Position numbers and translations under genes: made by a program
The notes under the pieces: model-generated
The model's database searches: none
Seen by the model: the letters and a program-made list of their open reading frames with translations, nothing else
Told to the model about the DNA's origin: nothing
Part shown: one piece after another, positions 15,726-31,413 of the stretch
Numbering within the stretch: position 1 is the first letter of the stretch
How the letters are laid out: each line of letters opens with the position of its first letter
DNA from: Haladaptatus sp. ZSTT2
Lineage (GTDB): Archaea > Halobacteriota > Halobacteria > Halobacteriales > Halococcaceae
NCBI RefSeq assembly: GCF_037081775.1
Contig: NZ_JBAMHQ010000003.1
Span: forward strand, 1-52,063
Length of the DNA: 52,063 bases
Direction: 5' to 3'

Positions 15726-15726
15726 G

Positions 15727-16976: not shown

Positions 16977-16998
16977 TAATCTTAAGAATAAGATTAAA
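16977..16998. repeat. AT-rich dyad, copy 5
   Basis: TAATCTTAAGAATAAGATTA core; its reverse complement occurs at 17123-17144. Upstream of the MNT gene. Confidence 0.6.
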
Positions 16999-17122
16999 CC
17001 AGCTATCTACTACTTTGTGATCCTGTAGCCCCAATACAGGTCTGTCGTTCACATGGGCGACTAGTAGTGAATTACTGACGATTCAGTCTACTCCATAATC
17101 ACCGGATTACTAATCTCAAAGG

Positions 17123-17144
17123 TTTAATCTTATTCTTAAGATTA
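17123..17144. repeat. AT-rich dyad, copy 6
   Basis: Exact inverted copy of 16977-16998 (22 of 22 bases). The two could be bound together by a looping regulator. Confidence 0.6.
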
Positions 17145-17235
17145 ACCATACCCGCTCAAACGGAGATCCTCTGTCCGAAGGGCTAGGTGAATAGGAATCC
17201 GGTAAGGCTCGACAGTGATGGACGCCGTGGCAGGC

Positions 17236-17622
17236 TCAATCCTCGATTTCAGTCGCGGCACGATTCAGTATTCTATTGAAATCGTGACGGAGGCGGGCCG
17301 GTTTGGTTTCATACTCGCCAGCATCCTCGTATATGTTGAGAACACAGGCTCGAATATCACCTTCACTCCGATCCATAGCCTCGGCAACATCGTTCCAGGC
17401 TCTGTCCATTCGTGTCTCATCAATCGAGCGGAGATGTCCGTTGTCATCTCGCCTCGGTGGATTCCCATCGCGTTTCCGGTAGCTCTCTAGCAGGTGTTCT
17501 CTGTACTTCGGAGCAACTCGGCCCTCAATGAAGAATCCCGGAATGACGTCTGCTGCTGCGTCTCCCACTTCTTCGGGGAGAACTCTACTCCGACGCTGTT
17601 TGATCAGGTCTCTGAGACCCAT
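17236..17622 (-). CDS. Hypothetical protein
   Basis: 128 aa from ATG at 17622 (MGLRDLIKQRR); a further in-frame start exists at 17649. Basic N-terminus, then helical and charged, with a segment APKYREHLLESYRKRDGNPP and a conserved-looking FNRILNRAATEIED end. No family recognised. It stands alone between the dyad cluster and the recombinase gene; AT-rich dyad copy 7 lies upstream. Confidence 0.55.
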   Translation of the reverse strand: MGLRDLIKQRRSRVLPEEVGDAAADVIPGFFIEGRVAPKYREHLLESYRKRDGNPPRRDDNGHLRSIDETRMDRAWNDVAEAMDRSEGDIRACVLNIYEDAGEYETKPARLRHDFNRILNRAATEIED

Positions 17623-17786
17623 ATGCTTGCTATAAACCCGGGAGGACATATAGGGTCAAACCTGTGTTATCGATTTCTAGGAGGAGTAGAGCCAGATTCA
17701 GATAATACGGGCACTGTGTTTTATATAGGGGTTTCCCAGGTGCGTCTCTGGATTCTCTCGGGGCCCTCTAAAGGCAGCTAATACCC

Positions 17787-17819
17787 GTAATCTTAATATT
17801 AGGATTAACATTAGGGTTA
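17787..17819. repeat. AT-rich dyad, copy 7
   Basis: Contains TAATCTTAATATTAGGATTA. Just downstream of the recombinase gene and upstream of the 128-aa gene. Confidence 0.45.
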
Positions 17820-17869
17820 TGACGCCTCCTCAACCAACGTCCTACTGCTGCATCCATGCGTTGGTTGAG

Positions 17870-18994
17870 TCACTCGCCAAGAAGGTCGTCGACTTGCTTC
17901 GCGGTTTCAGCTGCTTGGATGTCGGAGTACGACTCGTGGGTCGTCTCGATGCTCGCGTGTCGGAGTGCTGATTGGGCGAGTTCGGCGTGGCCGCTCGCGT
18001 AGAGTTCGTGACCAAGCCCTCGACGGGCACCGTGTGGCTTCAGGTAGTCACCGTCGACGTCGAGGTCAGCGTCATCACACAGCCGCTTCATCAGGTTGCG
18101 AGCACCGTTCGTCGAGAGCGCTGGTGGGATGATCCCATGTTCTCGGAGCACCGTCTCGATATCGCTGCGCTCGAGAATGGTCTCGATCTCGTCGTCCGAA
18201 ACTCCCTCGTGGGCAAGCTGCTCGCGAACGGCGCGATATTTCGACGGGACGTGGCCGCTGGGAAAGACCGGCCACTCGTCAGTCGGTGGATCGAGGACAG
18301 TCCTGTACCGCTCTAATGCCGTGGCGGCCCGCTCGGGAAGCTGTGCGTACTCGTACTCTCGTGACTTCCCGAGGACGCGGACGGCACCGGAGTCGAGTTG
18401 GACGTCTCCCCAGGTGATGCCGTTGCGCTTGTCGTCCGAGGGTTCAGCGAACACCTCCGCGCCGCGAACGCCCGAGAGTCCCAGGAGATAGACGATTGCT
18501 CGGTCGCGAAAGGCCCGCTCACGACTCACGTCCGCTTCCTCGTCAAGGGCGTGGTCGACACGTTCGTCGACATAGCGCATGATCGCCCGCCGCTCCTTTT
18601 CCCGCCAGAACTGCCGGTCGGCGTCACCGAGATCCTCGGGGAGCTCGTCGGTGGCACGCTTCGCTTTGGCCGGATTCGTATCGAGGAGTTCGTCTGCCAC
18701 GCAGAACGTGAGGAACGCGCGGACGTACGCGTAGTAGGTGGTCGCGGTACTCGCTTTCAAATCACCGTCGCGGGCCTGCTTTTTGAGATGACGCGCGTAT
18801 CGGCGGCAGTCGAGGACGTCCAGGTCCTCGAGGTCCGTCACACCGCGCTCCTCGCGCAGCCAGGTTCGCCACGTCGCGAGGGTCGACGCGAAGTTCTTCC
18901 TGGAGTTACCAGCCTCGACACTGTCGAGGTACTGCTGGATGGCCGTCTCGACCGGTGTTCCCCCGGGTGTAGCGTCGCCCTCGTCGGGTTCCAT
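17870..18994 (-). CDS. Tyrosine recombinase/integrase (XerC/D-like)
   Basis: 374 aa from ATG at 18994 (MEPDEGDA); the frame is open to 19063. An N-terminal SAM-like domain (about 20-110) is followed by the catalytic domain with GLSGVRGAEVF (first Arg), VRVLGKSREYEY (Lys), LKPHGARRG (HxxR), ALRHASIETTHESY (His and the nucleophilic Tyr). All residues are in place, so it should be active. Codon use is more GC-rich than in neighbouring genes. It could resolve plasmid multimers, integrate the plasmid, or act in trans on the small islands at 29.4 and 39.7 kb, which carry no recombinase of their own. Confidence 0.92.
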   Translation of the reverse strand: MEPDEGDATPGGTPVETAIQQYLDSVEAGNSRKNFASTLATWRTWLREERGVTDLEDLDVLDCRRYARHLKKQARDGDLKASTATTYYAYVRAFLTFCVADELLDTNPAKAKRATDELPEDLGDADRQFWREKERRAIMRYVDERVDHALDEEADVSRERAFRDRAIVYLLGLSGVRGAEVFAEPSDDKRNGITWGDVQLDSGAVRVLGKSREYEYAQLPERAATALERYRTVLDPPTDEWPVFPSGHVPSKYRAVREQLAHEGVSDDEIETILERSDIETVLREHGIIPPALSTNGARNLMKRLCDDADLDVDGDYLKPHGARRGLGHELYASGHAELAQSALRHASIETTHESYSDIQAAETAKQVDDLLGE

Positions 18995-19382
18995 GGTTCG
19001 TGCTCGACCGACGGCGGCGACCCATGTAAATCTACTGTGTACAACTGGGATAATACACAGCAATTCTAAATTCTTAAATTCTTCCTATATCGAAGGGTAC
19101 ACAGGCTATAACGGTGATATTCTATTTTATGAACTGTATGTGGCTATACAAAATGCCGGGTGGGCTGAGGCCACAGATTCGGAGGATTCGTAGCTACAAA
19201 TCATCATCATCATGGCCGACTGGCTGCGAAAAAGACGCCTAATCGGTAGGGAGCGAGGGATTGGCGGATTCATCCTTGATGAAGACGACGTGAATCCCTA
19301 ATACAGCCTCCAGTCGGTCACGATTCCCGCACATGTGGTATTTGGCTGCCGAGACAACCTTTTCGAGAGTATTGGAATGCGG
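18995..19382. other. AT-rich intergenic stretch
   Basis: About 390 bp. A 29-codon frame (19214-19303 region, starting MADWLRKRR) is open but too short to support. No repeat shared with other gaps and no tRNA-like end was found beside the recombinase gene. Confidence 0.4.
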
Positions 19383-19886
19383 TCAATCCGTTTGAATACG
19401 GCCGAACGGCGGTTCTAGATCGGACTCTAAGCGGAATAATTCTTCCAATGTGCTTTTGGTAATTTCTGGGTGGCGGTACATCGCCCGGCCGATTGTTTGG
19501 AAGCGTTCGTCAGCCGTGGTCCAGTTTCGTATCTCTTCTAGATCGAAGTCGGGGTCATCGCGGTAGTCTCGAAGTTCCCACGCCACACTGCGAGCCTCGT
19601 CGATTGTCAACCGGACGTCGTCAACAGCGGTCGGATTCTCTAGCTCGCCGTGGTTGCCGATCTCGGTGTTTGTTAGCGCTGAAATGTTACTGATGAGGTT
19701 TTGACTGAGTTCAGTCACGTCTGCTTTCAGCTTCTCGTCGTGATGGGCTGCGACGAGTTGTAAGTACAAGAGCGCCGACATGGTATCCTGCGATACATAC
19801 ACGACTTGGTGGACGGATTGGACGTTCTCGAACGCTTCGTACGCGTCTTCGAGCTGAATTTGCGCTTCTGTCAGGATATCTCCCAT
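19383..19886 (-). CDS. Hypothetical helical protein
   Basis: 167 aa from ATG at 19886 (MGDILTEAQ); the longer open frame would run into the helicase gene. Almost entirely helical, e.g. QIQLEDAYEAFENVQSV and SALLYLQLVAAHHDEKL. No family recognised. It lies 70 bp downstream of the DNA2-like helicase on the same strand and may be co-transcribed with it. Helical small partners of this kind accompany many defence helicases, but this one carries no diagnostic motif. Confidence 0.65.
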   Translation of the reverse strand: MGDILTEAQIQLEDAYEAFENVQSVHQVVYVSQDTMSALLYLQLVAAHHDEKLKADVTELSQNLISNISALTNTEIGNHGELENPTAVDDVRLTIDEARSVAWELRDYRDDPDFDLEEIRNWTTADERFQTIGRAMYRHPEITKSTLEELFRLESDLEPPFGRIQTD

Positions 19887-19956
19887 CAAATCGAACGACA
19901 AAATGTGCTCGTATATACTTTCTCCCCCTGGTTGGCGGACTATGGGCGCTGAGAGA

Positions 19957-22272
19957 TCAACGTGATCTCGATACCAGCACGTCCTTTTCGATAAAGTACT
20001 CACTAAGACGGGCGAATGTGTCCGCACAACTGTCTTCCTCGTCTCGAAACGCTGCGGTGTTCGAGAGCGTGTCCCAATCACCGATCACCACAAGTCGCTT
20101 TTTCGCACGAGTGAGGGCAACGTTCAGCCGTTTGCGGCCATCATCCCGAGGTGATTCAAGGAATCCAGAATCGTTGCTTGCATTCGACCGGACAAACGAC
20201 ACGATAATCACTTCTCGCTGACCACCCTGGAACTTGTCAATGGTTTCGACGTCAACACCGTTCCCGACTTCGCTATCAAGTTCCGTCCGAATTTGACTAC
20301 GAATGTAATCCCGTTGCGCGCTATACCCAGTAATCACCCCGACATCTGATGGAGCCACACCATGTTGAAGCGCCTTGTTCACTTGCGCAACCACGTATTG
20401 TGCTTCTGTAGGGTTGTAGTAGGAATAATCGTCCTGTTGCTCATCGCCAGAATCATCGATCCCAAGCAGCGGTGTGAGCCCATCAATGGTCTCGGCCCGA
20501 TTTGCTTCTCCATGTTCGAGGTTCCCGTCGTAGAACTCCTGACTGGCGAACGCTGCAATGTCCTCATGCATACGGTATTGCCGATGGAGGGTCTGCGCGA
20601 GGTCGTCCCCGTATACGTTCAAGAGGTGCTCGAAAAGCGACGTGTGTAGCTCTTGATCTCGCATCTCAGGGTCAGACACAAATGGTGGGAGTTGTTTGTG
20701 ATCACCCGCAAGCACGGTCCGGAGACCATATGGACGGGGGTACTCCTCATCCTCGTCTAGTCGGCGTCCCCGACCGAATGGAACTGCCGTTGCAGGCCCT
20801 GAAGCTTGCGTCGCTTCGTCAATCACCACCAAGTCGAATGCGATCTCGCTCTGGTTTTCCAGCGTCGCAGCAGTATTGGTCGTTGAAGCAATGATATCAG
20901 TATCACCAAGGTTCCCATTCAACTGGTTTGACTGTTGGAAATACCGCCTGCCTACGAAGCTATTGACATCTCGCCTTGAACTTCCGACTCGAGCCATCGA
21001 TACATCGAGATCGTCAAATTCCTCTACCACGTTGTGGAGCGACGCCCGATCAATTTCGTTCTCAGTGCTTTCCCCGGCTACGATGTTATCGACTGCCTGG
21101 TTAGAATGAGCGCAGACAAGCACTCGTTGGCCCTGCTTCACTGCATGAGCGACAACCGTGACAAGCGTCCGTGTTTTCCCCGTCCCCGGTGGGCCATGAA
21201 TACAAAAGACGTCATCCGTTCGTAGTGCGTCCACAGCGGCGCGTTCTTGATACGTGTTCAAGTTGAGGAACGACTCGAACTTTTCCCGTAGAGGTGAGCA
21301 GAACGAGATCTCGCGGTTCCCAGCGAGAAGATCACGGTGGTTGGCCGCAATCGACTCAAATGCTTCGTACTCTCGTTTTTCGGCGATCCCTTTCGTTATC
21401 ACACGAAGAGAGCACTCATCGATTCCACCAAGGTTGACGTCACTGAAGTCAACCGCACCGAAAGCAGGGTCGATAGTAATAGACGATGATCCAATCGCCG
21501 TTACCAGTCCATCGAGATACGTCTCCTCACCCGTATTGGACTCCCACACAAGTAGCACGGTATTCCCTTCGAAAACACCGTACTCGCTTTGAACCTGATT
21601 ATACCTCTGCCCGGGCGAATTCGCAGGTGGGACGTAGACGCTACAGGAGATTTCGCTACCTTGGACTCTCGGTCGCGCGGACTGGATCTTCCCACCACCC
21701 GAACTCTCAACTTCTACCCCTCGGCTAACGACCGTGTCTAACTCCTCTTCATGGGTTCGAAGGAGTTCAGTCCGAACGAATTGAAGCGTATCGTTGACGT
21801 AATCGGTGTAGTCCTCGTCGTCCAAGGCCTGCTGAGCGGTAATCGGCTCAGATCTGTACGGAGGTCGATCATCGATCAAATCCAACTCGACGTCGTCTGG
21901 CAGATCGAAATGGCGATCCCAAAATCTGAGTCTGTAAGCCAATCCCGACCGAGCAGCCTCTTCGAACTCAATAAATTCGTCGAGATCTCCTTCTGTGTCG
22001 TAGTAATGCAGTGCTTCGCCGTACTCGTCCTTCCGATAGGCGATATACTCACCCGTCAGCTCGGGGTGGTCTGTCTCATGGACCGGAAGCATAACGACAT
22101 CACCCGTTCCAAGCCCCCGCCGGTTAAACACGGTAACGAGGTGGTCGAGAGCCACATCGGGGTCACCGTTCTGCCAGAGATCGCAAATCTCCGCGTCGTC
22201 TGTTGAAAGTTCTATTTGAGTTGGCGAGTTAGAACGTAGTTGAGCCGCGATATCTTCCAAATACGTATCCAT
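19957..22272 (-). CDS. DNA2/UPF1-like SF1B helicase
   Basis: 771 aa from ATG at 22272 (a GTG two codons earlier is an alternative). The first 320 residues carry no motif I know. Then SF1B motifs follow: FCIHGPPGTGKTRTLV (I), FDLVVIDEATQASG (II), TVLAGDHKQLPPFV (III), LHRQYRMHEDIAAF (IV), VETIDKFQGGQREVIIVSF (V), LNVALTRAKKRLVVIGD (VI). This set matches UPF1/DNA2/SMUBP2-type helicases with an OB-like N-terminal part. No nuclease domain is visible. It is downstream of, and on the same strand as, the minus-strand CBASS operon (70 bp gap), so it may be part of the same transcript. Confidence 0.9.
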   Translation of the reverse strand: MDTYLEDIAAQLRSNSPTQIELSTDDAEICDLWQNGDPDVALDHLVTVFNRRGLGTGDVVMLPVHETDHPELTGEYIAYRKDEYGEALHYYDTEGDLDEFIEFEEAARSGLAYRLRFWDRHFDLPDDVELDLIDDRPPYRSEPITAQQALDDEDYTDYVNDTLQFVRTELLRTHEEELDTVVSRGVEVESSGGGKIQSARPRVQGSEISCSVYVPPANSPGQRYNQVQSEYGVFEGNTVLLVWESNTGEETYLDGLVTAIGSSSITIDPAFGAVDFSDVNLGGIDECSLRVITKGIAEKREYEAFESIAANHRDLLAGNREISFCSPLREKFESFLNLNTYQERAAVDALRTDDVFCIHGPPGTGKTRTLVTVVAHAVKQGQRVLVCAHSNQAVDNIVAGESTENEIDRASLHNVVEEFDDLDVSMARVGSSRRDVNSFVGRRYFQQSNQLNGNLGDTDIIASTTNTAATLENQSEIAFDLVVIDEATQASGPATAVPFGRGRRLDEDEEYPRPYGLRTVLAGDHKQLPPFVSDPEMRDQELHTSLFEHLLNVYGDDLAQTLHRQYRMHEDIAAFASQEFYDGNLEHGEANRAETIDGLTPLLGIDDSGDEQQDDYSYYNPTEAQYVVAQVNKALQHGVAPSDVGVITGYSAQRDYIRSQIRTELDSEVGNGVDVETIDKFQGGQREVIIVSFVRSNASNDSGFLESPRDDGRKRLNVALTRAKKRLVVIGDWDTLSNTAAFRDEEDSCADTFARLSEYFIEKDVLVSRSR

Positions 22273-22342
22273 TATCACTCGCCGTGGTTTTCAAACACAA
22301 AAATCGTACTGTTCGGTCGGGCTTCGAACCAGACTCAGAGGG

Positions 22343-22618
22343 TCAGACACCGCCAACGCCATCGTCATCGTCGTCAGTCGAGAGGACGAGACCCGCCAGA
22401 CCGCCGATCAACGCACCGGCTGGCCCACCGATGGCGAAACCAGCCGCGGCCCCGCCCGCACCCCCGAGTGTCTGGCGCTGGCCCTGCGTCAACTTCTCGT
22501 GCATCCCGCGACTGACAGTCCCCGATCCGTTGCACTTGGGACAGTCACCGTAGCCTGTCTGCGGGTCAGCCGTTGCACCACTCCCGTTGCAGGTGGGGCA
22601 CTTCTTCGTCTCAGTCAT
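22343..22618 (-). CDS. Small zinc-finger plus glycine-zipper protein
   Basis: 91 aa. The N-terminus has two DnaJ-type half fingers, CPTCNGSG and CPKCNGSG (residues about 7-34), enough for one zinc site. The C-terminal half is a glycine-zipper hydrophobic stretch (GGAGGAAAGFAIGGPAGALIGG) followed by an acidic tail, so it probably inserts in or sits against the membrane. It lies 38 bp downstream of the Cap15-like gene on the same strand, inside the CBASS operon. It is not a known CBASS component; it could be a chaperone-like or membrane accessory of the effector. Confidence 0.75.
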   Translation of the reverse strand: MTETKKCPTCNGSGATADPQTGYGDCPKCNGSGTVSRGMHEKLTQGQRQTLGGAGGAAAGFAIGGPAGALIGGLAGLVLSTDDDDDGVGGV

Positions 22619-22656
22619 AATCGGTAGTGTCTGTCAAGATGGCAAAGATGTTCCGG

Positions 22657-23301
22657 TCAGTCGGCCCGTTCGAAGTACATGAGACCGTTGTTCTCACGTC
22701 CAGGGCCAGTGTAGTAGAGCCCTTCGAGGGTCTCTGTGTCGCTCTCATCACGGTATTCGAGGGACGCAGTTCCGAAGTGCATGTTCAGCCCCTTGACGAG
22801 TGGCGAGCCCTCGTTCTCGTACTGGTAACTGACACTTGGCCACTTTCCTTCGTCAGTCAGCATCGTCGCACCGTTGCTGTCTGAAGGCGTCTGCGTCGTC
22901 TCGAAGTGGACGTTGATCTTTCGCCACGTCTGATCGATGTCAAGCCAGGCCTTCAGTTTCTGGCCATCCTGGCTGTGGTCGTTATCGGGATGAAGCGCCT
23001 CGTCGGGGATTTCTCCTTCATACGATGTGACGATCCACCCCTCCCACTTCCCGTTAAGATTTGGAACGCAAGTGATACCGAGCGCCTGGGCGATTCGAGT
23101 CTTCCAGAACCACCGGTCGTGGATCTTCCAGACAGCAGCGAAGGCGAGTCCCCATGAGACAACGAATCCCGCCGCAAATGGAAGGACAGTTGAGAGCGCC
23201 GAGGTAACCAGCTCGACGAGGATCGTGATGCCGTAGGCGAGCAAAGCCAGGCCGCCGTATATCTTCGGGCGGAGATCATTGTCCGTGGAGTACGTGTGCA
23301 T
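22657..23301 (-). CDS. cap15: CBASS effector, Cap15-like (two TM helices plus beta-barrel)
   Basis: 214 aa. Two transmembrane helices lie in residues about 13-60 (IYGGLALLAYGITILVEL and a second Leu/Ala/Phe-rich one). They are followed by a beta-barrel with the pattern I recall for Cap15 nucleotide-receptor domains: LNGKWEGWIVTSYEG, a W-x-K-I-N-V-H-F-E-T strand, a SxSxxA turn, an SYQYENE strand, and LEGLYYTGPGR near the end. Known Cap15 proteins oligomerise in the membrane after binding a cyclic nucleotide and kill the infected cell. The start is 3 bp after the CD-NTase stop. A second, diverged copy faces it at 25234-25920. Confidence 0.85.
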   Translation of the reverse strand: MHTYSTDNDLRPKIYGGLALLAYGITILVELVTSALSTVLPFAAGFVVSWGLAFAAVWKIHDRWFWKTRIAQALGITCVPNLNGKWEGWIVTSYEGEIPDEALHPDNDHSQDGQKLKAWLDIDQTWRKINVHFETTQTPSDSNGATMLTDEGKWPSVSYQYENEGSPLVKGLNMHFGTASLEYRDESDTETLEGLYYTGPGRENNGLMYFERAD

Positions 23302-23304
23302 AGG

Positions 23305-24186
23305 TTACCAGTTGTCCCAGAGTGTGACCATCGCGTCGATGTACCGGCCCGCGTACCGGGTGTTCCACTCCGCGGGGCCCGACCCGAATATGTCGGTGAT
23401 GCCGTTCTGGCAGGTCCAGTCACTATAGTCCGTCGAATTCAGGTATCGGAGAATTTTCGCGACTCGGTCCTGTTTGTTATAGGTATATCGTCCGTCTGGG
23501 ACGTTGTACAGGAGGTTCTCGATGAAGTACGATGGGACGTTCTCCTTGTTCAGTTCGTTATTATCGACGAGGTAGTTCCGTGCGCGCTTGAAGATGCGCA
23601 CGGTCTCTTTGAACCGGTTGCTGGTGCTTGACTGCCTGGTGCTGCCGTTGTTGATGTGTTGTTTCGGGTAGTTTACGATCTTCGTGTTGTTGAGGTTGAA
23701 GAACGCGATGCCCGAGTGGTAGCCGTTCGGATAGTGGTAGTAGTCGCGGTGGTCCGCACAGACGAGCACGTCGGCGTCCAGCGGCAGTTTACCCGCTTCC
23801 ACTTCGATTGCTTTCCCGACCGGATCGACAGCCGAGGAGCCGAAGCGCGACTCCAGTACGTCAACGACATCGGACCGGAACTCGTGCCAGCTGTAGTCCG
23901 GGTCGCCGGAGTTGCGCCGCCAATGATCCCGCTCGGCGGGGCTGAGCCCGGACAGATCAACGTAGTACATGTCCGTAAGCTGGACCACGATGTCCACATC
24001 GGAACTGGCCCGGACGATGGTGTAGTTCGCATAGGAGCCCTGCAGATAGGTGTCGAAGTCCGCGTGGGCGAGCGTTTCGCTGGACTGCAATTCCTTCTGG
24101 ATTCGGCTGTGGGTCCGCTTCGCGGAATCGATGGGGGCGCTCTCGTATTGCGCCCACGATTCCAGTGTCCCTGTATCTATCGGCAT
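23305..24186 (-). CDS. CD-NTase, cyclic-nucleotide synthase of CBASS operon A
   Basis: 293 aa. Nucleotidyltransferase active site: QGSYANYTIVRASSDVDIVV gives G50-S51 and Asp63/Asp65; the third acid is in LPLDADVLVC (Asp137/139). The C-terminal helical core ends FGSGPAEWNTRYAGRYIDAM. This is the CD-NTase/OAS-like layout, and the directly following Cap15-like gene makes the assignment firm. On phage attack it should make a cyclic oligonucleotide that opens the effector. Start ATG at 24186. It shares the 158-bp divergent control region with CD-NTase B and aligns with it from the first residues (MxIDxxTLESW). Confidence 0.9.
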   Translation of the reverse strand: MPIDTGTLESWAQYESAPIDSAKRTHSRIQKELQSSETLAHADFDTYLQGSYANYTIVRASSDVDIVVQLTDMYYVDLSGLSPAERDHWRRNSGDPDYSWHEFRSDVVDVLESRFGSSAVDPVGKAIEVEAGKLPLDADVLVCADHRDYYHYPNGYHSGIAFFNLNNTKIVNYPKQHINNGSTRQSSTSNRFKETVRIFKRARNYLVDNNELNKENVPSYFIENLLYNVPDGRYTYNKQDRVAKILRYLNSTDYSDWTCQNGITDIFGSGPAEWNTRYAGRYIDAMVTLWDNW

Positions 24187-24344
24187 TAATGGGAGTTACA
24201 CGCCTCTTTCTGACCGACCGCTAAAACCCCCCCGATTCCACTTCCACCGTGCTCTGCGAACCGTTAAGGGACCGTAGCAGGCAATTAGAATCGTGACCGT
24301 CCCGTCTCCTATCGAAACTCTGCCAATTTCTCTTGGTGGTGGCT
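24187..24344. promoter_or_regulatory. Shared control region of two divergent CBASS operons
   Basis: Only 158 bp separate the start codons of the two CD-NTase genes, so both promoters lie here back to back. A TATA-like GTTTTAGC is readable on the minus strand (about 24218-24225), some 32-39 bp before the first start. I see no operator-like dyad and no regulator gene beside it. Confidence 0.55.
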
Positions 24345-25250
24345 ATGGCAATCGATGAGGATACCCTCGAAAGCTGGACCGACCCGAAGCGAGCCGCCGT
24401 GAAATCAGCGGAGAAAACTCACAAGAAGATCCGGAACGCGCTCAACGACAGCGATACGCTCGCTGACGTCGAGTTCCACGACTTCCTCCAAGGGTCGTAC
24501 GCGAACCACACGATCATCCGCGATTCGAGCGACGTCGATATCGTCGTTCGCCTCGACGAGTTCCAGTACTTCAACCTCCACGACCTCGACCCGGAAGACC
24601 AGGAGGATGTAGATGTCGAAGATTACGATTACGACTACGACGAGTTCCGAGACGACGTGCTGAGCGTTCTGCAGGACACCTACCCTGAGGGGACGTTCGA
24701 CCCGTCCGGGAACGCTATCGAGATTTCGGCACCGGGTCTACCACTCGACGCCGACGTGCTGGTATGCGTTCAGTACAAGCACTACTACAACTATCCCCAA
24801 GGGTACGATGGGATCCTTTTCTGGCCGACCGATTCGATCTCCTCGGTCGTGAACTATCCGACGCGACACAAGGACCACGGATCGGACAAGCAGGACGACA
24901 CCGACGACCTGTATAAAGAGACTGTGCGGATGTTCAAGAACGCCCGCAAGGAGATCGTCGCGGACGGGTACATCACCGACGACATCGTAGCGTCCTACTT
25001 CATCGAGTGTCTCCTGTACAACGTCCCACCGGGCCGGTACGTGGACGACCTGCAAGAACGGTATGTCAAGATCGTCGATTACCTGAAGGACGCGGACTTC
25101 TCCGGGTGGAAGTGCCAAAATGGTGTGACCGATCTCTTCGGGCGTGGCCGCACGAAGTGGGACACCTGGCACGCCAAGCTGTTCGTCGATGCTTTGGAAA
25201 CGTACTGGGAGAACGCCAGCACCAACAGCATAAATGCACGTCTATTCTAG
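24345..25250 (+). CDS. CD-NTase, cyclic-nucleotide synthase of CBASS operon B
   Basis: 301 aa from ATG at 24345 (MAIDEDTLESW), chosen because it lines up with CD-NTase A; upstream TTG/GTG codons are open. Active-site signature QGSYANHTIIRDSSDVDIVV has G50-S51 and Asp63/Asp65 at the same numbers as A; the third acid is in LPLDADVLVC. An acidic insert DYDYDYDEFRDD follows around residue 92. The end matches A too (FGRGRTKWDTWHAKLFVDAL). So A and B are diverged paralogues, each with its own effector. The stop overlaps the next gene by 17 bp. Confidence 0.9.
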   Translation: MAIDEDTLESWTDPKRAAVKSAEKTHKKIRNALNDSDTLADVEFHDFLQGSYANHTIIRDSSDVDIVVRLDEFQYFNLHDLDPEDQEDVDVEDYDYDYDEFRDDVLSVLQDTYPEGTFDPSGNAIEISAPGLPLDADVLVCVQYKHYYNYPQGYDGILFWPTDSISSVVNYPTRHKDHGSDKQDDTDDLYKETVRMFKNARKEIVADGYITDDIVASYFIECLLYNVPPGRYVDDLQERYVKIVDYLKDADFSGWKCQNGVTDLFGRGRTKWDTWHAKLFVDALETYWENASTNSINARLF

Positions 25251-25920
25251 CGATAACGAGTTCCGCCCGACGTTCCTAGCGACCCTGGGCGTCGTCGCGT
25301 TCGTCGTCGTGATCGCACTGAACGCTTACGTCTTCCCGTGGCTCTACCAGCAAATCCCGTTCGAAATTCCATCACTGATAGTTCCCGGTCTCGCCTTCGG
25401 GGTTGTGTTCGGCCTGTTTCGCCGAGTGTTCGACCGACGGCTGTGGAACAAGGCCTGGATGCCAGACTTCATTGCCGCCGTTCCCGATCTCACTGGCCAC
25501 TGGGAGGGCGGAATCAAGACCAGCTACGAGGGTGAAATCTCAGACGACTACCTCGCCGACGGAGGCCATCGGCCGATGACGGCTACACTGGACATCGAGC
25601 AGACGTGGAGCAAGATCATCATCCACTTCGAAACAGATCGTTCTCAGTCGGTCAGCACGGCGGCCAACTTCCAGACCGAGGGGACGCTCCATCCAAAGCT
25701 CTCATACCTATTCGAGAACGAGGGTGCAGATGTTGACGAGCAGGCGGCAGACGAAGGACCATACGACGGGACGACACGGTTCACGTATCGGGAATCGAAC
25801 GACCGACTCGTGGGCTATTACTACACTGGGCCTGCCCGTGCTTCGGAGCAAGGCGATGGCCAAAAGACGACGTATGGGACAGCGGAGTTCACTCGTATGA
25901 GCGACGAGTCCCAGAAATAG
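25234..25920 (+). CDS. cap15: CBASS effector, Cap15-like (second copy)
   Basis: 228 aa. The opening MHVYSSDNEFRP matches MHTYSTDNDLRP of the other effector. Two TM helices (about residues 14-62) precede a beta-barrel: LTGHWEGGIKTSYEG, WSKIIIHFETDRSQS, LSYLFENEG, LVGYYYTGPAR, YGTAEFTRM. An extra acidic loop (DVDEQAADEGPYD) sits before the last strands. Same predicted membrane-disrupting role as copy A, driven by CD-NTase B. The gene begins inside the CD-NTase reading frame, so the pair is translationally coupled. Confidence 0.85.
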   Translation: MHVYSSDNEFRPTFLATLGVVAFVVVIALNAYVFPWLYQQIPFEIPSLIVPGLAFGVVFGLFRRVFDRRLWNKAWMPDFIAAVPDLTGHWEGGIKTSYEGEISDDYLADGGHRPMTATLDIEQTWSKIIIHFETDRSQSVSTAANFQTEGTLHPKLSYLFENEGADVDEQAADEGPYDGTTRFTYRESNDRLVGYYYTGPARASEQGDGQKTTYGTAEFTRMSDESQK

Positions 25921-25922
25921 TG

Positions 25923-26024
25923 TTAACGCACTGCTTGGTTTGGAACTCGTGGCCGGTCGTTTTCCCAAGAGGCGGCATCAGCGAGTTCCACGAGATCGGT
26001 AATCCGCTGGTCAAACACGTTCAT
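25923..26024 (-). CDS. Very short ORF, possibly a truncated gene
   Basis: 33 codons from ATG at 26024, opening MNVFDQRITDLVELADAASW, a plausible amphipathic helical start. It ends 3 bp from the stop of the Cap15-like gene. That may be the remaining N-terminus of a backbone gene cut off when the CBASS block arrived, or a small complete gene. No evidence separates the two. Confidence 0.3.
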   Translation of the reverse strand: MNVFDQRITDLVELADAASWENDRPRVPNQAVR

Positions 26025-26082
26025 GCGTGATATTGAGGAGCAGCTGACGCAACGCTAGCTTCCCAGGGCTTTGGTCTAGCCC

Positions 26083-26109
26083 ATTCTTAACATTAAGAAT
26101 AAGATTAAG
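26083..26109. repeat. AT-rich dyad, copy 8
   Basis: Contains ATTAAGAATAAGATTAAG, very close to copy 5 at 16977. Just downstream of the SWIM gene, at the border of the CBASS block. Confidence 0.5.
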
Positions 26110-26122
26110 TACTGCTGACATC

Positions 26123-26989
26123 CTACAGTATCGAATTTGGCTTTTGTTCCGATTCTGTGCGAGGGAGGCGTCCGTCTGGTCGGGGAACGTGCCCTGCATC
26201 GATTTCGATATCGACGCGGCGCATATGCTTACAGCCCCCCTCAGGTTCGCGTCGCTGCCAGTCGAGACATGTACACGTCTCAGCGGCGACATCGACATCG
26301 TAGAAATTCCCGGACTCTGAATGAACCTCGTACACGCCGCCCTTCTTCAAGAGTGAGACGTCCATCTCTTCGTCGCATGCTCGCCGCGTTCGCGGTGCGA
26401 GCTCATCGGCTGAAGGTTCTGCCGAAACCGTATCTGTCTCTGGTTTGATGGCGCTTTGGGTGTCTCTAGTTGCCACCCATCCACCGTCCGGGGCGAGATC
26501 GGGGTCGTTTGGTTCCACGAGGCGAGCCAGGTGCTCCTCAATCGGGTGATTGTAGTGGAGGAGAAAGTGTGCTTCGCGTCGACCGCGATGATCGTAGGAG
26601 CCACACGCTGCAGCTGGCCCCTCCCAGACGCGCCACGCGCCGAGTGCCGTCATCACCTCCAACGCCCGTCGCGGCAACTCGTCCTGGTCTAACTGCTCGT
26701 AGAAGATGCGAAACCGAGTACAGTGCTCTTGCGGTTCGATGTCGGTCCACCACTCAACCTCGTCTCTCCAGTGATCGAACATCGCCGCATCGTTCCCATA
26801 CCCGACCGTGATCCCTGGAACACGTGATTCGCCCGTATGGGTGTCTTCAGCCTCGTTCTCCAGCAGCCGGAGTACCGCGAAACGCAGGTGTTCGTGGAGT
26901 GGCTGTTCGGTTCCGTAGCCGACTTGCGGATGGCTCTCGATTGTCTGGCGGGCTTCGTTGAGAACCGTCGTGAGGTACTGTTGAGTCAT
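26123..26989 (-). CDS. SWIM zinc-finger protein
   Basis: 288 aa. The SWIM motif CTCLDWQRREPEGGCKH (CxC...CxH) is at about residue 240. The N-terminal 150 residues are helical and acidic, with the segment HFLLHYNHPIEEHLARL; the middle is a disordered linker. SWIM domains bind DNA or proteins and occur in recombination mediators; families of this make-up are common on haloarchaeal plasmids. It begins the leader-hairpin gene series (hairpin at 27025-27047, 35 nt before the start). Confidence 0.85.
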   Translation of the reverse strand: MTQQYLTTVLNEARQTIESHPQVGYGTEQPLHEHLRFAVLRLLENEAEDTHTGESRVPGITVGYGNDAAMFDHWRDEVEWWTDIEPQEHCTRFRIFYEQLDQDELPRRALEVMTALGAWRVWEGPAAACGSYDHRGRREAHFLLHYNHPIEEHLARLVEPNDPDLAPDGGWVATRDTQSAIKPETDTVSAEPSADELAPRTRRACDEEMDVSLLKKGGVYEVHSESGNFYDVDVAAETCTCLDWQRREPEGGCKHMRRVDIEIDAGHVPRPDGRLPRTESEQKPNSIL

Positions 26990-27024
26990 GGATTCGTTCT
27001 ATCCCGGTCGACGCACGATCACGC

Positions 27025-27047
27025 GCGCCGCCACCCTTCCGCGGCGC
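27025..27047 (-). promoter_or_regulatory. Leader stem-loop 1
   Basis: Seven-pair stem GCGCCGC/GCGGCGC with loop (transcript sense) GGAAGGGTG, 35 nt before the SWIM start codon. It is preceded on the transcript by a T-containing tract. One of a family of stem-loops before minus-strand genes. Confidence 0.65.
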
Positions 27048-27099
27048 AATAGAAACTCACGGCGATGTGGAGAGCCGTTCATCGACGCGCTATACTGAC

Positions 27100-28026
27100 C
27101 TACCCATCGATCACGTCGATGATCTCCTCTGCGGTGCTGCTAATCCGTCCGAAACGATCTTGGATCGACTCTGGTTCGTCATCCTGCCACGCGGCGAGAT
27201 AGAACGCTGAGCCGCTCGTTTCAAGGCCGCAATACCGACCAACGATGTACGCGACGGCTTCTGCTTCGACTTCGCGCTTTGCCCGTTCGGCCTCATCGTC
27301 GACGTCGAAATGGAGCAGCGCGTGCGCGAACTCGTGAATGAGCGTGACCGCGAGGTCGGCCTGGTTCGTCCGTCCTTTCGCCTCAACGATCGGCGTGAAA
27401 TCATGGATATCCCGCTGTTTGCAGACCCCCTTTGCGTCGCCGTGCTCCCACTCGTCAGCGTCGACGATGCGAACCGTCACGCCGAGCTCATCCGCTGCTG
27501 CTGTGAGTGCTGGTACGAGGTCCTCAGCATCGCCTGTCGCCTCCGTTTCTAGCTCGGGAAGCGGCTCTCCCTCGGTCTGCGAGACATCGAAGACAGCGGC
27601 TGGTTTGAATCCCACGAGCCCTTTCGACCACTCCTCGGGTGGCGTCTCGTCGTACTCACAACCGCTGTTCTCGTGGTAGCTGGGCGAATTCTCACACTCT
27701 GGACATCGCTTGATGATGATCGGTGCCCAGATCCAGATCGCCTGTTCGCCCTCCTGGACGTGCCGGTCGAACTCATTCCGCCAGGTGTTGAAGCCAGCGA
27801 CCTTCGTCGCCTCGGGACACTGGAGTTTGATGAGCAGCGTGTTGCGATGGGAGTAATCGTGGAACCGACTCTGGACGTCGAGCCACTCTTGGAACTCATC
27901 GCTGGTCTGTGCCGCATCAACGTCGCCAACGAGTTCGTCGATCCATGCTTTAATCGTACTGTGCATCTCGTCTGTTCGTGTGTCGGTCTCCTCGAAGGAG
28001 GCCGACGAGTCGCTAGTCGTAGCCAT
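27100..28026 (-). CDS. ArdC-like protein: ssDNA-binding domain plus zinc metallopeptidase
   Basis: 308 aa. The first 130 residues match the ArdC N-terminal domain (WLDVQSRFHDYSHRNTLLI, VAGFNTWRNEF), followed by a cysteine-containing insert (CPECENSP...CEY) and then an ImmA/IrrE-type peptidase with TLIHEFAHALLH (HExxH) and a downstream VEAEAVAYIVG glutamate. ArdC proteins protect incoming plasmid DNA against restriction during transfer, so this hints at mobility. Start ATG at 28026, with leader stem-loop 2 in front. Confidence 0.9.
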   Translation of the reverse strand: MATTSDSSASFEETDTRTDEMHSTIKAWIDELVGDVDAAQTSDEFQEWLDVQSRFHDYSHRNTLLIKLQCPEATKVAGFNTWRNEFDRHVQEGEQAIWIWAPIIIKRCPECENSPSYHENSGCEYDETPPEEWSKGLVGFKPAAVFDVSQTEGEPLPELETEATGDAEDLVPALTAAADELGVTVRIVDADEWEHGDAKGVCKQRDIHDFTPIVEAKGRTNQADLAVTLIHEFAHALLHFDVDDEAERAKREVEAEAVAYIVGRYCGLETSGSAFYLAAWQDDEPESIQDRFGRISSTAEEIIDVIDG

Positions 28027-28070
28027 GATGTTCTGAGATTCGCCTTACTGCGATCGCTTCGATTCAGTCC

Positions 28071-28091
28071 GCGCCGCACCCTTCAGGGCGC
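28071..28091 (-). promoter_or_regulatory. Leader stem-loop 2
   Basis: Stem GCGCC/GGCGC, loop (transcript sense) containing TGAAGGGTGC, preceded on the transcript by GTTTTTC, 44 nt before the ArdC-like start. Confidence 0.65.
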
Positions 28092-28113
28092 GAAAAACAA
28101 CTCCCCTTGAGAG

Positions 28114-28446
28114 TTACCGGAGTTCGTATGGTTCGTCCGCGAATCCGACTGTAACGAGATATTCGAGATACGCGTCGAACCGCTCGACGTCGCTCGGCGT
28201 GTCTATCGCGAGGTGCCGTGTCCACTCGATGGCCCACCGGAACGCGGGATCGGACCCACCTTTGCCGTGGATGTACCACCACCGAGCTGCTTTGAGAACC
28301 ACGAGTGGATTCGTCGGCGGCTGTTCACTCGCCAGTCCGCGAGTGATGGATTCGATCTCCGCAGGAACATCACCTGGATCGATTTCCCCGGACTGTGTGT
28401 TCGAGATATCGATTGGAATCTCATCGACCGAAACGTCGTTCGCATG
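28114..28446 (-). pseudogene. Small haloarchaeal plasmid protein, probably frameshifted near its start
   Basis: The frame is open for 110 codons and reads like a real protein (ITRGLASEQPPTNPLVVLK, AARWWYIHGKGG, DPAFRWAIEWTRHLA). But it has no ATG: the codon before the open frame is TAG, and the only ATG at the distance expected from the leader stem-loop (28443-28445) is in the +1 frame. A GTG at 28302 would allow 62 residues. A one-base indel near the start codon is the best explanation; translation from the GTG is the alternative. Family unknown to me beyond haloarchaeal plasmids. Confidence 0.55.
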
Positions 28447-28492
28447 CTATCGCTGACTCACTTGATTCACCTCTGGATGAAGACTCTCGATG

Positions 28493-28516
28493 GAGCCTTC
28501 GGCCTCTCAGGGGCTC
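28493..28516 (-). promoter_or_regulatory. Leader stem-loop 3
   Basis: Stem GAGCC/GGCTC with a 14-nt loop, preceded on the transcript by GTTTTTCGA, 48 nt before the out-of-frame ATG of the small gene. Same family as the others but with a longer loop. Confidence 0.55.
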
Positions 28517-28533
28517 GAAAAACACTCTCCGAG

Positions 28534-29463
28534 TCACGCCGGTGGGAAGTGGGTGCCCTGATCACCGGCAATCTCCTCGAGATTGTTCCGATGGCGATGC
28601 GAGAAGTAGCAGTCGTAGCTGCAGTATCCACAGACATCTCCCGTATCATATTCGGCAACAAAGGGACCACGAGGGGCTCGCCAGACATTCGCCCCGCATC
28701 CAGTACAGGCAGCACCGTCGAGCTCACTCGGTGACGGCCCCTCGTACTCTACATCCAGACCGGCATCTTGCGGTGTCGAATCTGGCCAGACGCCGTGTTG
28801 CTGCCAGAACTCTCGGAGTCGACCAAGGCTGTGACGAACGGTCTTCCGAACCGTGACGTGGTCAGCGTCCCGGCCGCTGTCGTCCCATCCGGCAGCTGTC
28901 CAGAACTCTCCGAACTGCGCCCCGCGATGCAGACCATTCCAGTCGAGGCCGACGATATCTGCGGGTGGGTCATTCGTGAGCGTCGGTCGGGTCAACTGCT
29001 GAATGACGTCAAGCTGTTTCGGCGGGCTCCCCCCGAGGATGTGGACGCGTCGGCCACGCCAGTCGGTCGGCTCGGAGAACTCGTGGGCCAACCGATCAGC
29101 GTAGCCCCGGGAGTAGCCGAGCACGATGTCGTCTGGAATCATCTCGATCACCTCCTGGCACTTGGGCACGATGACGAGCTCTGCATCGGTGTAGCTCGCT
29201 TGGATTTCGCGAGGGGCAGCGACGTAGTCATCGACATCGTCGGGCTCGTATGCGTCCCCAATAACGCCGACTCGCGGATCGTGTTCGAAAAACCGGTCGA
29301 CGTATCGAGTCAGGTCGGGATTTCGAAAGTCGTTATCGAGCATCCCGACGGGAATCTCTAACCCCTGAAATTGGGATTGCTGATAACTACAGTCTTCACG
29401 ATAGCCGGGCAGGAAGCCGAGTGTGAAGGCGTCCAGCGCGAACGGGGCCCGATGCAGGAACGC
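28534..29463 (-). pseudogene. Backbone gene (DUF6610-like), C-terminal part, split by an island
   Basis: The frame is open from 29463 (an in-frame TAA follows at 29464-29466) to the stop at 28534, about 309 codons with no normal start codon at its head. The first residues, AFLHRAPFALDAFTLGFLPG, continue exactly where an N-terminal fragment at 31295-31382 stops (DYVAFLHRGP). Further along are VGMLDNDFRNPDLTRYVDRF and a C-terminal four-Cys site (CTGCGANVW, CGYCSYDC). I recall this make-up from haloarchaeal DUF6610 proteins. An ATG at 29343 could give a 269-aa product. Island 1 interrupts the gene. Confidence 0.8.
29448..29463. repeat. Direct repeat, left end of island 1
   Basis: CCCGATGCAGGAACGC; it recurs with one change at 31295-31310, 1,847 bp away. 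Both copies encode FLHR of the same split gene, so this looks like an att core or target duplication. Confidence 0.75.
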
Positions 29464-29737
29464 TTACAAACATCTTGGTGAGATGTCGTGCAACAGACCG
29501 TTGAGAAAAATAATACGATTGATTGACAAATTAGAGTAGTCTAGACTACTGATGTGCTTGTATTGCCTTGGAAAATTGGATGAATTTAGTACATTTTGAA
29601 ATCATCAATGAAACCAACAGATTAGATAATTCCGACACAACATATTTCGATTGTTTCTATCATTATCCCACTCCTTTATTTCGACTACTGAGCAAGGGAA
29701 AAGTTGATAGTAAATAAACGAATTTATTTAACGTACA

Positions 29738-30130
29738 ATGAATGGCTCAATTCTAGCCATCCCGATTTTTTTCACGGTGTTAATGGGAATCTCAGTAGGT
29801 GTTTGGACGTATCTCGACGCAGATAGCCGCAATGCCGTCTACGCAGAGATTATCGCTGCAATTGTGGCAGTATTTATACCAGCTATTCTGGTGTATCTCT
29901 TCTATAGAAATAGAATCGGGCCACGTACTACTGAAATCAAACTCGTTCAAAAAGTCGCTGGTATTCTTGGCGTTGGGAGTATATTCACGGTACTTTTAGC
30001 GCAGTCTTTAACTCCCCTAGACCCGTTTTCGGCGGCATACTCTATGCTGTATCTTGCTCCTGTAGGTGTAGTAGTCGGGTATCTCTGGATATATCAAGTC
30101 AGCCCACGAATATTTAACACTTCTTCGTAA
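29738..30130 (+). CDS. Four-helix membrane protein
   Basis: 130 aa with four hydrophobic segments, about residues 4-25, 36-57, 71-92 and 100-122; loops are short. No family recognised. It is carried by island 1 opposite the secreted protein gene, and the two stops are 28 bp apart. A toxin-immunity or secreted-effector/membrane-partner relation is conceivable but only a guess. AT-rich codon use like the rest of the island. Confidence 0.75.
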   Translation: MNGSILAIPIFFTVLMGISVGVWTYLDADSRNAVYAEIIAAIVAVFIPAILVYLFYRNRIGPRTTEIKLVQKVAGILGVGSIFTVLLAQSLTPLDPFSAAYSMLYLAPVGVVVGYLWIYQVSPRIFNTSS

Positions 30131-30158
30131 ATTCGCCTCCTTACCATTTCAAGATATA

Positions 30159-31220
30159 CTATACTTCTATTAGTTGGTAATTTAATAGATTGAAATGGCC
30201 ATTATGAGCGCCACCAGGCATATCCGCCGCAGAAATTGCGGTTTGAGAGGTTCCAATCGCTGCTGCGAGTGAAGATCCCTGCATATAAACATCAAAGGTT
30301 GATGGAGGATTAGAGAGGTATATCCCTTTTTCATACTCTTTTACCACATGCCAATAGTCACCGAGGAATGTACTCCTTTTTAACGCATATGTTTGAGCGA
30401 TTGTCTGGTTGTTTGACTTAATATAGAATTGTAATTCAATCTCTGAGTTGGCTAGTGCGTTCCAAGCCGCGGCATCATATTCTCCTTTGAAATTTATTAC
30501 CAGAGGGCCATTTGACCATTGATGGCTACTCCATGCCTGAGCGTACCCAGAACCGTACCCAGCTACGGAAGCATCAGCGGCCGTATTTGCGTAGTCATAC
30601 CCTGCATCGTTATACGCGCCACCCAAGAATGGAATTGATAGGCTCGTTTCGTATGAATCATCAAACCCCCAATACGTGGTAGACTGGGCACTCACGTCAC
30701 TGGTAACTAAGTCTGTTTCACTAGTTTCCGACCACATAGTGGTTTGAGGTGAGTTAGATTCATCTTGAAATTCAGAAATTGAGTGGGGTAGTCCGATTTC
30801 TTCTTTTGCCTTTCTCATACGTTTGTTCAACACTCTCTCAACTTCAGCACAGCCCATCTTGAATAGACGATCATCGATATGAATCTCGATTACAGAGCCG
30901 TCGTCACTAACTAGGGATTGAGGGATGATGGTTCCATCGTCGAACTCTTGTTCCTCGACAGATACCAAATCTAGATCTGGATCATACAGTTTAGAAACGT
31001 CACCCATCTCCGGCATTTCATCGACGATATGAACGTCACCTCTTCTACTTATTGCTCCATCCTGATCTTGAATTCTGCCGTGTCTGTGAACTAGTTCTTT
31101 GCAGTATTTTTCGTAATCCACTAACCCACCATCTTTCGTAGAAGCGGCGTTTGCGGTTCCAAAGAGGGTATTACTGAGTGCAATTCCACCAAGAGACTTT
31201 AATGCAGCCCTTCTCTTCAT
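30159..31220 (-). CDS. Tat-secreted protein of unknown function
   Basis: 353 aa. The N-terminus MKRRAALKSLGGIALS with an Ala-x-Ala site after residue 25 is a twin-arginine signal. The mature protein has an acidic N-terminal half and a C-terminal half rich in Ser, Tyr, Ala and Gly (GYDYANTAADASVAGYGSG) that looks like a beta-rich extracellular domain. A single Cys; no catalytic motif seen. It could be a secreted toxin (halocin-like) or an adhesin; family unknown. Island 1 cargo. Confidence 0.8.
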   Translation of the reverse strand: MKRRAALKSLGGIALSNTLFGTANAASTKDGGLVDYEKYCKELVHRHGRIQDQDGAISRRGDVHIVDEMPEMGDVSKLYDPDLDLVSVEEQEFDDGTIIPQSLVSDDGSVIEIHIDDRLFKMGCAEVERVLNKRMRKAKEEIGLPHSISEFQDESNSPQTTMWSETSETDLVTSDVSAQSTTYWGFDDSYETSLSIPFLGGAYNDAGYDYANTAADASVAGYGSGYAQAWSSHQWSNGPLVINFKGEYDAAAWNALANSEIELQFYIKSNNQTIAQTYALKRSTFLGDYWHVVKEYEKGIYLSNPPSTFDVYMQGSSLAAAIGTSQTAISAADMPGGAHNGHFNLLNYQLIEV

Positions 31221-31294
31221 AATGTATATTATCTAACTAATTGTAATAAAAACGAATATAGTGGCAATATTTATCCCTATATTTGCTTGTGGAC

Positions 31295-31382: not shown

Positions 31383-31413
31383 GAGTAGGGCCCGGAACGG
31401 CCACTTCTGGCCG

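What the first reader, a model, noticed from the sequence alone, without database searches (positions are those of the whole stretch)
22343..25920. Two head-to-head CBASS operons on a haloarchaeal plasmid
Seen: two CD-NTase genes start 158 bp apart in opposite directions, each directly followed by a Cap15-like gene (two TM helices, then a barrel with WEG, HFET and YYTG signatures). Active-site residues sit at the same positions (G50-S51, D63, D65). Known: Cap15 is a CBASS effector that acts in the membrane after binding a cyclic nucleotide. Inferred: a duplicated, then diverged pair with one shared control region, perhaps making different signals so that a phage nuclease acting on one does not silence the other. 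I know of no described twin of this kind in archaea.
Basis: partly seen in the sequence, partly recalled or inferred. Interest (0 to 1): 0.9.

Follow-up and report, generated by a model that had tools for sequence, protein, structure and literature searches.

The report
Paired CBASS defence cassette in haloarchaea
A salt-loving archaeon's plasmid carries two complete virus-alarm operons back to back, and this pair, with a fifth small gene, recurs in other species as one conserved unit, which hints that two linked alarms work better than one.

Summary
Window 22343-25920 carries two intact clade-E CD-NTases, A and B (48% identical), reading outward from a 158-bp gap. Each is followed by a Cap15-type effector; both predicted folds match solved Cap15 best.

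With a fifth gene (zf91: zinc finger plus glycine zipper) they form a cassette, conserved over 22350-25916, found in seven loci but only three genomic backgrounds, under purifying selection. A and B are sister clades, an old duplication; the effector tree is unresolved. Haloarchaea also hold an unrelated tail-to-tail pair and tandem synthases with one effector. Of 28 haloarchaeal genomes with such synthases, 9 carry a pair; no second synthase gene was seen at 46 other loci (one has two fused domains) or in 7 non-haloarchaeal archaea.

'Different signals' is not supported: at known product-setting residues A and B differ only at lid 3 (Ala/Thr). B instead has a very acidic segment. Best reading: two type I CBASS arms, probably with different triggers and a similar uridine-containing signal, both damaging the membrane. 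I found no paired CBASS in the papers searched. Nothing was tested by experiment.

The parts
22343..22618 (-). zf91: 91-aa protein with two CxxCxGxG repeats (DnaJ-type zinc site) and a glycine-zipper hydrophobic segment; third gene of the A operon
   Evidence: ORF; weak, below-cut-off Pfam similarity to Anti-TRAP and DnaJ central domain; present in 7 of 7 head-to-head loci at 75-100% identity, no hit in the two half loci; dN/dS 0.11 (window/CSM-61) and 0.10 (CSM-61/G233), other pairs have saturated or zero dS; 9 of 292 genomes match at E <= 0.001, of which only the 4 with the intact pair at E < 1e-40
22657..23301 (-). effector A: Cap15-type, two TM helices plus beta-barrel
   Evidence: Cap15_CD_rec 4.9e-23; PADLOC 2TM effector 2.2e-47; model pLDDT 81.8; Foldseek top hit Cap15 7n34, E 1.5e-6
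23305..24186 (-). CD-NTase A: clade-E (CdnE) synthase, catalytic G50-S51, D63, D65 and the third Asp intact
   Evidence: PADLOC Cyclase 2.9e-97; RmCdnE 6e0k 2.2e-51; residues
24187..24344 (.). 158-bp intergenic region between the two start codons, presumed shared control region
   Evidence: gap is 134-158 bp in the seven head-to-head loci
24239..24268 (.). conserved core CACTTyCACC..GCT.TGCGAA...TTAA inside the gap; BRE/TATA-like reading towards B (my reading, no promoter scan run)
   Evidence: alignment of seven head-to-head loci (three backgrounds); not kept in the half loci G225 and YIM A00010
24345..25250 (+). CD-NTase B: clade-E synthase with a strongly acidic segment (alternative GTG/TTG starts at 24336/24333)
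   Evidence: PADLOC Cyclase 2.8e-88; 48% identical to A; segment net charge -19
25234..25920 (+). effector B: Cap15-type, two TM helices plus beta-barrel; start overlaps the end of B
   Evidence: Cap15_CD_rec 2.5e-19; PADLOC 2TM effector 4.7e-34; model pLDDT 76.6; Foldseek top hit Cap15 7n34, E 3.9e-7

Best explanation
The locus is a five-gene defence cassette: two complete type I CBASS arms (CdnE A with Cap15 A and zf91; CdnE B with Cap15 B) reading outward from one short control region and inherited as a unit. In each arm the synthase is switched on during virus infection and makes a uridine-containing cyclic dinucleotide, most likely with a purine partner as in RmCdnE. The Cap15 barrel binds it, Cap15 assembles in the membrane, and the infected cell dies or stops before virus release. 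Gene identity, arrangement, intact catalytic residues, purifying selection and co-inheritance are shown by sequence; the product class is inferred from known specificity residues; the mechanism is taken from characterised CdnE-Cap15 systems. The most likely reason for two arms (inference) is two different infection sensors feeding a similar output: the product-setting residues hardly differ between A and B, whereas the charge of one segment and of the C-terminal lobe differs consistently. zf91 probably adds a membrane-anchored accessory function (inference). I am about 0.95 sure of the identity and about 0.45 of the whole statement, the two-sensor reason included.
For: Identity. Unit: blastn of window 15000-32000 against the Halorubrum CSM-61, Halorarius, Halosimplex, Natronomonas and G233 loci gives one main block, 22350-25916 (25914 in G233), at about 80% and no match outside the cassette; Halobium matches 21604-29463 at 94%, one side limited by its contig end. 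All five genes are present in 7 of 7 loci. dN/dS is 0.05-0.12 in 14 of 15 gene comparisons among window, CSM-61 and G233; the other has saturated dS. A and B are sister clades of 8 rows each. Specificity residues N/H/C in 14 of 14 A and B rows (rules from PMC10442399); lid 3 Ala in 8 of 8 A and Thr in 8 of 8 B. B has net charge -16 to -19 at Rm positions 67-116 in 8 of 8 rows, A -4 to -9 in 8 of 8; the B rows are the 8 most acidic of 47 haloarchaeal rows. In G251 and Halomarina BND7 two synthases precede a single effector, so two synthases can share one output. A CdnE03-Cap15 system senses a viral RNA through a basic surface (PMC10686824, abstract and passages). A review calls the Cap15 barrel a sensor of uracil-containing cyclic dinucleotides (PMC10419184, passages).
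Against: No activity, trigger or product has been measured. The excess of A/B-fixed differences in the acidic segment (11 of 23 fixed columns against 40 of 135 elsewhere) is not significant (Fisher p = 0.095), and acidic drift could be salt adaptation, though A in the same cells lacks it. The N-terminal region that binds RNA in CdnE03 is net acidic in both A and B. The CdnE03-Cap15 system signals with cGAMP (PMC10686824), so Cap15 does not always imply a uracil signal. Half cassettes survive with open frames: B alone in G225, A alone in YIM A00010, so an arm can persist by itself. The fixed lid 3 Ala/Thr difference could tune the product. The seven loci amount to three genomic backgrounds.
Confidence: 0.45

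Rival explanations
1. The two arms make different cyclic nucleotides, so that a viral nuclease or sponge that removes one signal leaves the other.
For: Lid 3, a donor-site residue, is Ala in 8 of 8 A and Thr in 8 of 8 B; in the tail-to-tail pair the donor gate is Val in 5 of 5 C rows and Gln in 6 of 6 D rows. Effectors A and B are only 39% identical.
Against: Acceptor lid (N), lid 2 (H) and donor gate (C) are identical in the 14 A and B rows, and neither has the (R/Q)xW motif. In G251 and Halomarina two synthases precede one effector. No viral Acb gene was searched for here.
Confidence: 0.2
2. The arms are independent CBASS operons kept side by side only by shared transfer on plasmids, with no functional link.
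For: Each half occurs alone with open frames (G225, YIM A00010). Adjacent defence genes are common (recalled). The cassette moves between families: 99.6-100% identity per protein with Halobium salinum (G258), a different family.
Against: Orientation, a 134-158-bp gap with a conserved core, and the fifth gene are kept in 7 of 7 loci while the flanks differ between the three backgrounds. Pairs of these synthases arose in at least two unrelated forms in haloarchaea, and no second synthase gene was seen at 46 other loci.
Confidence: 0.25
3. One arm works in reverse, like Panoptes: its synthase is always on and its product holds its 2TM-beta effector off, so viruses that remove cyclic nucleotides to block the other arm set it off.
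For: Panoptes effectors are Cap15 relatives with the opposite response and co-locate with CBASS (PMC12657230, PMC12657218, passages). Effector B has a longer stem branch than effector A (1.06 against 0.41).
Against: Both synthases are CD-NTases, not mCpol. No marker residues for the reversed response were tested. Effector B keeps the Cap15 signatures.
Confidence: 0.07

Closest known systems
Type I CBASS with CdnE and Cap15 (EfCdnE/ClCdnE/LpCdnE operons; staphylococcal CdnE03-Cap15)
   Same: Same two genes in the same order, same catalytic residues, same effector fold (operons described in passages of PMC10442399 and PMC10686824)
   Different: Two paralogous operons joined head to head, with a fifth gene, inherited as one cassette
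Panoptes (mCpol/OptS with 2TM-beta/OptE)
   Same: Effector of the Cap15 / S-2TM-beta kind
   Different: The synthase is a Cas10-like mCpol there and a CD-NTase here
Tail-to-tail pair of CdnE-Cap15 operons in Haloarcula vallismortis, Halapricum, Haloglomus, Salinigranum, G125 and G318 (found here)
   Same: Two CdnE-Cap15 operons side by side in haloarchaea
   Different: Opposite orientation, and two different synthase lineages instead of a duplicated pair
Two CBASS systems of Haloferax 48N (PMC12714723)
   Same: Two CBASS in one haloarchaeon, plasmid-borne (passages seen)
   Different: The passages do not say that they are adjacent or of the same kind

Membership tests
CBASS type I | CD-NTase with the conserved GS...DxD...D active site | tested here: met
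   All 14 A and B rows keep G, S and the three Asp; PADLOC Cyclase E <= 2.8e-88
CBASS type I | Effector gene next to the CD-NTase | tested here: met
   Cap15 gene directly downstream in both arms
CBASS type I | No Cap2/Cap3 or HORMA/TRIP13 helper genes (definition recalled) | tested here: met
   Pfam and PADLOC scans of the five cassette proteins and five neighbours show none (PADLOC lists were capped at 25 for A, B and the helicase)
CBASS type I | Anti-viral protection with cyclic nucleotide signal | not testable with these tools
   needs expression and virus challenge
CdnE (clade E CD-NTase) | Closest kin among solved CD-NTases is CdnE, with lid-1 Asn | tested here: met
   6e0k, 7x4f, 7x4c, 6e0m and 7x4a are the five matches to the A+B profile at E <= 0.001; N at lid 1
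Cyclic di-pyrimidine CdnE subgroup | (R/Q)xW motif and Glu donor gate | tested here: not met
   A has AxW, B has TxW, both have Cys at the gate
[quoted passage not shown]
   Models: two long helices then eight strands; best PDB match Cap15; Cap15_CD_rec. Ligand binding itself not tested
Cap15 | Ligand-induced assembly that breaks the membrane | not testable with these tools
   needs biochemistry
Panoptes | mCpol synthase with a 2TM-beta effector | tested here: not met
   The synthases are CD-NTases

The most novel reading that the evidence does not exclude
Paired CdnE-Cap15 is a distinct kind of CBASS in haloarchaea, arisen at least twice (a duplicated head-to-head pair and a tail-to-tail pair of different lineages). 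The two arms, with zf91 in the head-to-head form, act as one unit: two sensors or a mutual-guard pair whose protection exceeds either arm alone.
Probability: 0.25. Interest if true: 0.8.

Novelty: new variant of a known kind. Interest (0 to 1): 0.6.

Why it matters
CBASS is usually described as one synthase feeding one effector. A conserved two-arm cassette, with a second and differently built pair in the same group of archaea, suggests that selection has more than once favoured two linked alarms. It gives a compact system in which to ask whether the second arm adds a trigger, a signal or a back-up. It also supplies a candidate third component (zf91) and a haloarchaeal model for cyclic-nucleotide immunity.

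Tried and rejected
Effector swap: the effector trees put effector A nearer the tail-to-tail effector C and leave effector B outside, while the synthases A and B are sisters. A swap would be exciting, but an AU test does not reject effectors A and B as one clade (p = 0.163), so I do not claim it.

In-frame TAG codons reported for some tail-to-tail synthases looked like possible recoding. The ORFs are open over their whole 298 aa, so I read the stop as lying in the tail of the aligned stretch. Rejected.

Bacterial pairs: the Pediococcus plasmid with three places is a record in which the same roughly 13-kb unit, with the same protein accessions, is repeated three times. The Staphylococcus plasmid with two places (49,839 bp) is twice the length of its 24.9-kb relatives and is probably a dimer (judged by length only). 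Neither is counted as a pair.

Basic N-terminal RNA-binding surface as in CdnE03: A and B are both net acidic in this region (-4 to -8). No support for RNA sensing by that surface in either arm.

A single position or product switch that would explain the pair was not found: 51 fixed differences against 107 fixed identities are spread over the protein.

A phage home: no match to B among 50,697 phage records.
Full report
What is there. The 52,063-bp contig is a plasmid: its two ends share 119 identical bases, implying a 51,944-bp circle, and it carries an Orc1/Cdc6 gene at 50576-51970. At 22343-25920 five genes form a compact block: zf91 (22343-22618, -), effector A (22657-23301, -), CD-NTase A (23305-24186, -), a 158-bp gap, CD-NTase B (24345-25250, +) and effector B (25234-25920, +). 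A and B are 48% identical; the effectors are 39% identical. In the whole assembly the only matches at E <= 0.001 to Cap15_CD_rec and to SMODS are these two pairs.

Identity. Both synthases hit PADLOC Cyclase models at E <= 2.8e-88. The A+B profile matches five distinct PDB sequences at E <= 0.001, all CdnE. Both effectors pass the Cap15_CD_rec cut-off. AlphaFold models (pLDDT 81.8 and 76.6, 20 sequences each) show two long helices then eight strands, and the only PDB matches at E <= 0.001 are the three Cap15 chains 7n34, 7n35_A and 7n35_B.

The pair is a conserved cassette. A search of 391 genomes of the class, drawn evenly from a larger group, found CdnE matches in 28, and 9 of the 28 carry two: head to head in G000, G258, G226 and G233; tail to tail in G125, G318, G322 and, across a contig break, G051; tandem in G251. 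Named loci add the head-to-head form in Halobium salinum, Halorubrum sp. CSM-61, Halorarius halobius, Halosimplex salinum and Natronomonas marina. Blastn of window 15000-32000 against CSM-61, Halorarius, Halosimplex, Natronomonas and G233 gives one main block at about 80% identity, 22350-25916 (25914 in G233), with nothing outside the cassette; Halobium matches further, 21604-29463, at 94%, one side limited by its contig end. The seven loci are not independent: the Halorarius and Natronomonas plasmids are 99.99% identical over 14.9 kb, and the CSM-61, Halorarius and Halosimplex loci are about 96-97% identical over 10-14 kb. I count three backgrounds (window with Halobium; the CSM-61 group; G233).

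Selection and partial loss. Among window, CSM-61 and G233, dN/dS is 0.05-0.12 for 14 of 15 gene comparisons; the remaining one (zf91, window against G233) has saturated dS. Two half loci exist: G225 has B with effector B, and YIM A00010 has A with effector A. Both halves have open frames, and neither shows zf91 within the stretch fetched. Upstream of the lone A lies an ORF that I read by eye as a transposase. In what I saw, zf91 is thus tied to the complete pair: 9 of 292 genomes match at E <= 0.001, four of them below 1e-40, all four with the intact pair; the next, G097 at 49% identity, has no CdnE match.

Origins. In a 66-row synthase tree, A and B are sister clades of 8 rows each (100/99), and joining A with C or B with C is rejected. 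The head-to-head pair is thus an old duplication. The tail-to-tail pair joins two different lineages, C and D; holding C and D together is rejected (p = 7.6e-5; the two G251 rows were not in the tested set, which adds to the penalty). The tree program flagged long branches. G251 carries D-like and C-like synthases in tandem with a single effector, and the Halomarina BND7 plasmid a tandem pair with a single effector; the Halomarina 437-aa synthase dropped out of the tree because only the first listed stretch of each protein was kept and it was short. The effector tree is not resolved for A and B (AU p = 0.163; 11 of 57 rows, ten bacterial or other loci and G340, were dropped for that tree).

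How unusual. No second synthase gene appears at any of the 46 non-haloarchaeal loci among the 56 (arrangements). Several are limited by contig ends; the two hits at L084 are pieces that I take for one gene; and L077 holds two CdnE-like domains fused in one protein, which is a pairing of another sort. In the phylum search of 392 genomes, 13 had a match; the 7 outside the class each had one. Fisher's test on 9 of 28 genomes against 0 of 46 loci gives p = 6e-5, but loci are related; with pairs counted as three origins against 19 single genomes it is 0.03. The order-level search (392 genomes, 26 with a match) added three genomes and no new pair. Among plasmid records, five haloarchaeal ones have two places (Natronomonas, Halorarius, Halomarina, Haloglomus, Salinigranum), out of eight haloarchaeal records among the 40 listed of 46.

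Product. Known rules (PMC10442399, abstract and passages): lid-1 Asn selects a uridine acceptor; a Glu gate with (R/Q)xW restricts the donor to pyrimidine; RmCdnE with Cys and Glu there takes a purine. A has N, H, C and AxW (7 of 7 rows); B has N, H, C and TxW (7 of 7); C has N, H, V, TxW (5 of 5); D has N, H, Q, TxW (6 of 6). With 8 and 8 rows, lid 3 is fixed as Ala in A and Thr in B. So A and B look like uridine-plus-purine makers, and known rules predict no clear difference in product. A review describes the Cap15 barrel as a sensor of uracil-containing cyclic dinucleotides (PMC10419184, passages), which fits; against this, the staphylococcal CdnE03-Cap15 system uses cGAMP (PMC10686824).

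Where A and B differ. Of 158 columns fixed in both groups, 51 differ. The richest region after the short C-terminus is Rm 67-116. There B carries net charge -16 to -19 in 8 of 8 rows and A -4 to -9 in 8 of 8; the B rows are the 8 most acidic of 47 haloarchaeal rows. The C lobe (Rm 186-244) is +2 to +5 in A and -5 to 0 in B. A known CdnE03-Cap15 system senses a structured viral RNA through a basic surface (PMC10686824, abstract and passages), so a change of surface charge is a reasonable sign of a change of trigger. This is inference; the enrichment of differences in that segment is not significant (p = 0.095), the N-terminal region that binds RNA in CdnE03 is net acidic in both A and B, and I have no structure that shows the segment at the surface.

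Control region. The gap is 134-158 bp in the seven loci, with a core CACTTyCACC..GCT.TGCGAA...TTAA in all seven and not in the two half loci. Its use as a shared promoter is inferred.

Literature. Searches over the held open library showed no description of adjacent paired CBASS operons; the listings showed 20 of 35, 15 of 58 and 15 of 145 papers. In the passages I saw, an archaeal defence survey (PMC12988326) treats CBASS by prevalence and origin, and a Haloferax strain with two CBASS systems (PMC12714723) is not said to have them adjacent. The library lacks most subscription papers, and I did not read the original Cap15 paper.

Verdict. The parts are known; the conserved two-arm, five-gene unit and the second, differently built pair in the same group of archaea are, as far as I could search, undescribed.

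Noticed in passing
L077 (Elusimicrobia MAG STD1_184) 1913-3757: A 614-aa protein made of two CdnE-like domains in one chain; by eye the first has lost catalytic Asp residues while the second keeps its DxD: a natural fusion of an apparently dead and a live synthase.
   Followed up: partly
L104 (Halomarina sp. BND7 plasmid) 4809-8610: Tandem of a 288-aa unknown, a 437-aa CD-NTase with a long acidic N-terminal extension, a second CD-NTase and one Cap15.
   Followed up: partly
L041 (G251) 5844-8514: D-like and C-like synthases overlapping by four bases with one C-like Cap15 behind them: two synthases, one effector.
   Followed up: partly
L012 843-1507 and L054 8903-9567 (Natronococcus sp. A-GB7): The Cap15 gene is split into two overlapping reading frames (78 and 169 aa), probably a frameshifted effector.
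   Followed up: no
window 2268-13385: A run of genes: calcineurin-like phosphoesterase, SbcC/Rad50-like AAA protein, a 691-aa unknown, and a UvrD helicase with a PD-(D/E)XK nuclease domain; looks like a recombination or defence cluster.
   Followed up: no
window 19957-22278: An SF1 helicase next to the cassette, kept in Halobium as far as its contig goes (first 225 residues, 99.6%); its helicase part matches MkoA/Mokosh models.
   Followed up: no
window 27100-28026: An ArdC-N / M78-peptidase-like protein, possibly anti-restriction, beside the CBASS cassette.
   Followed up: no
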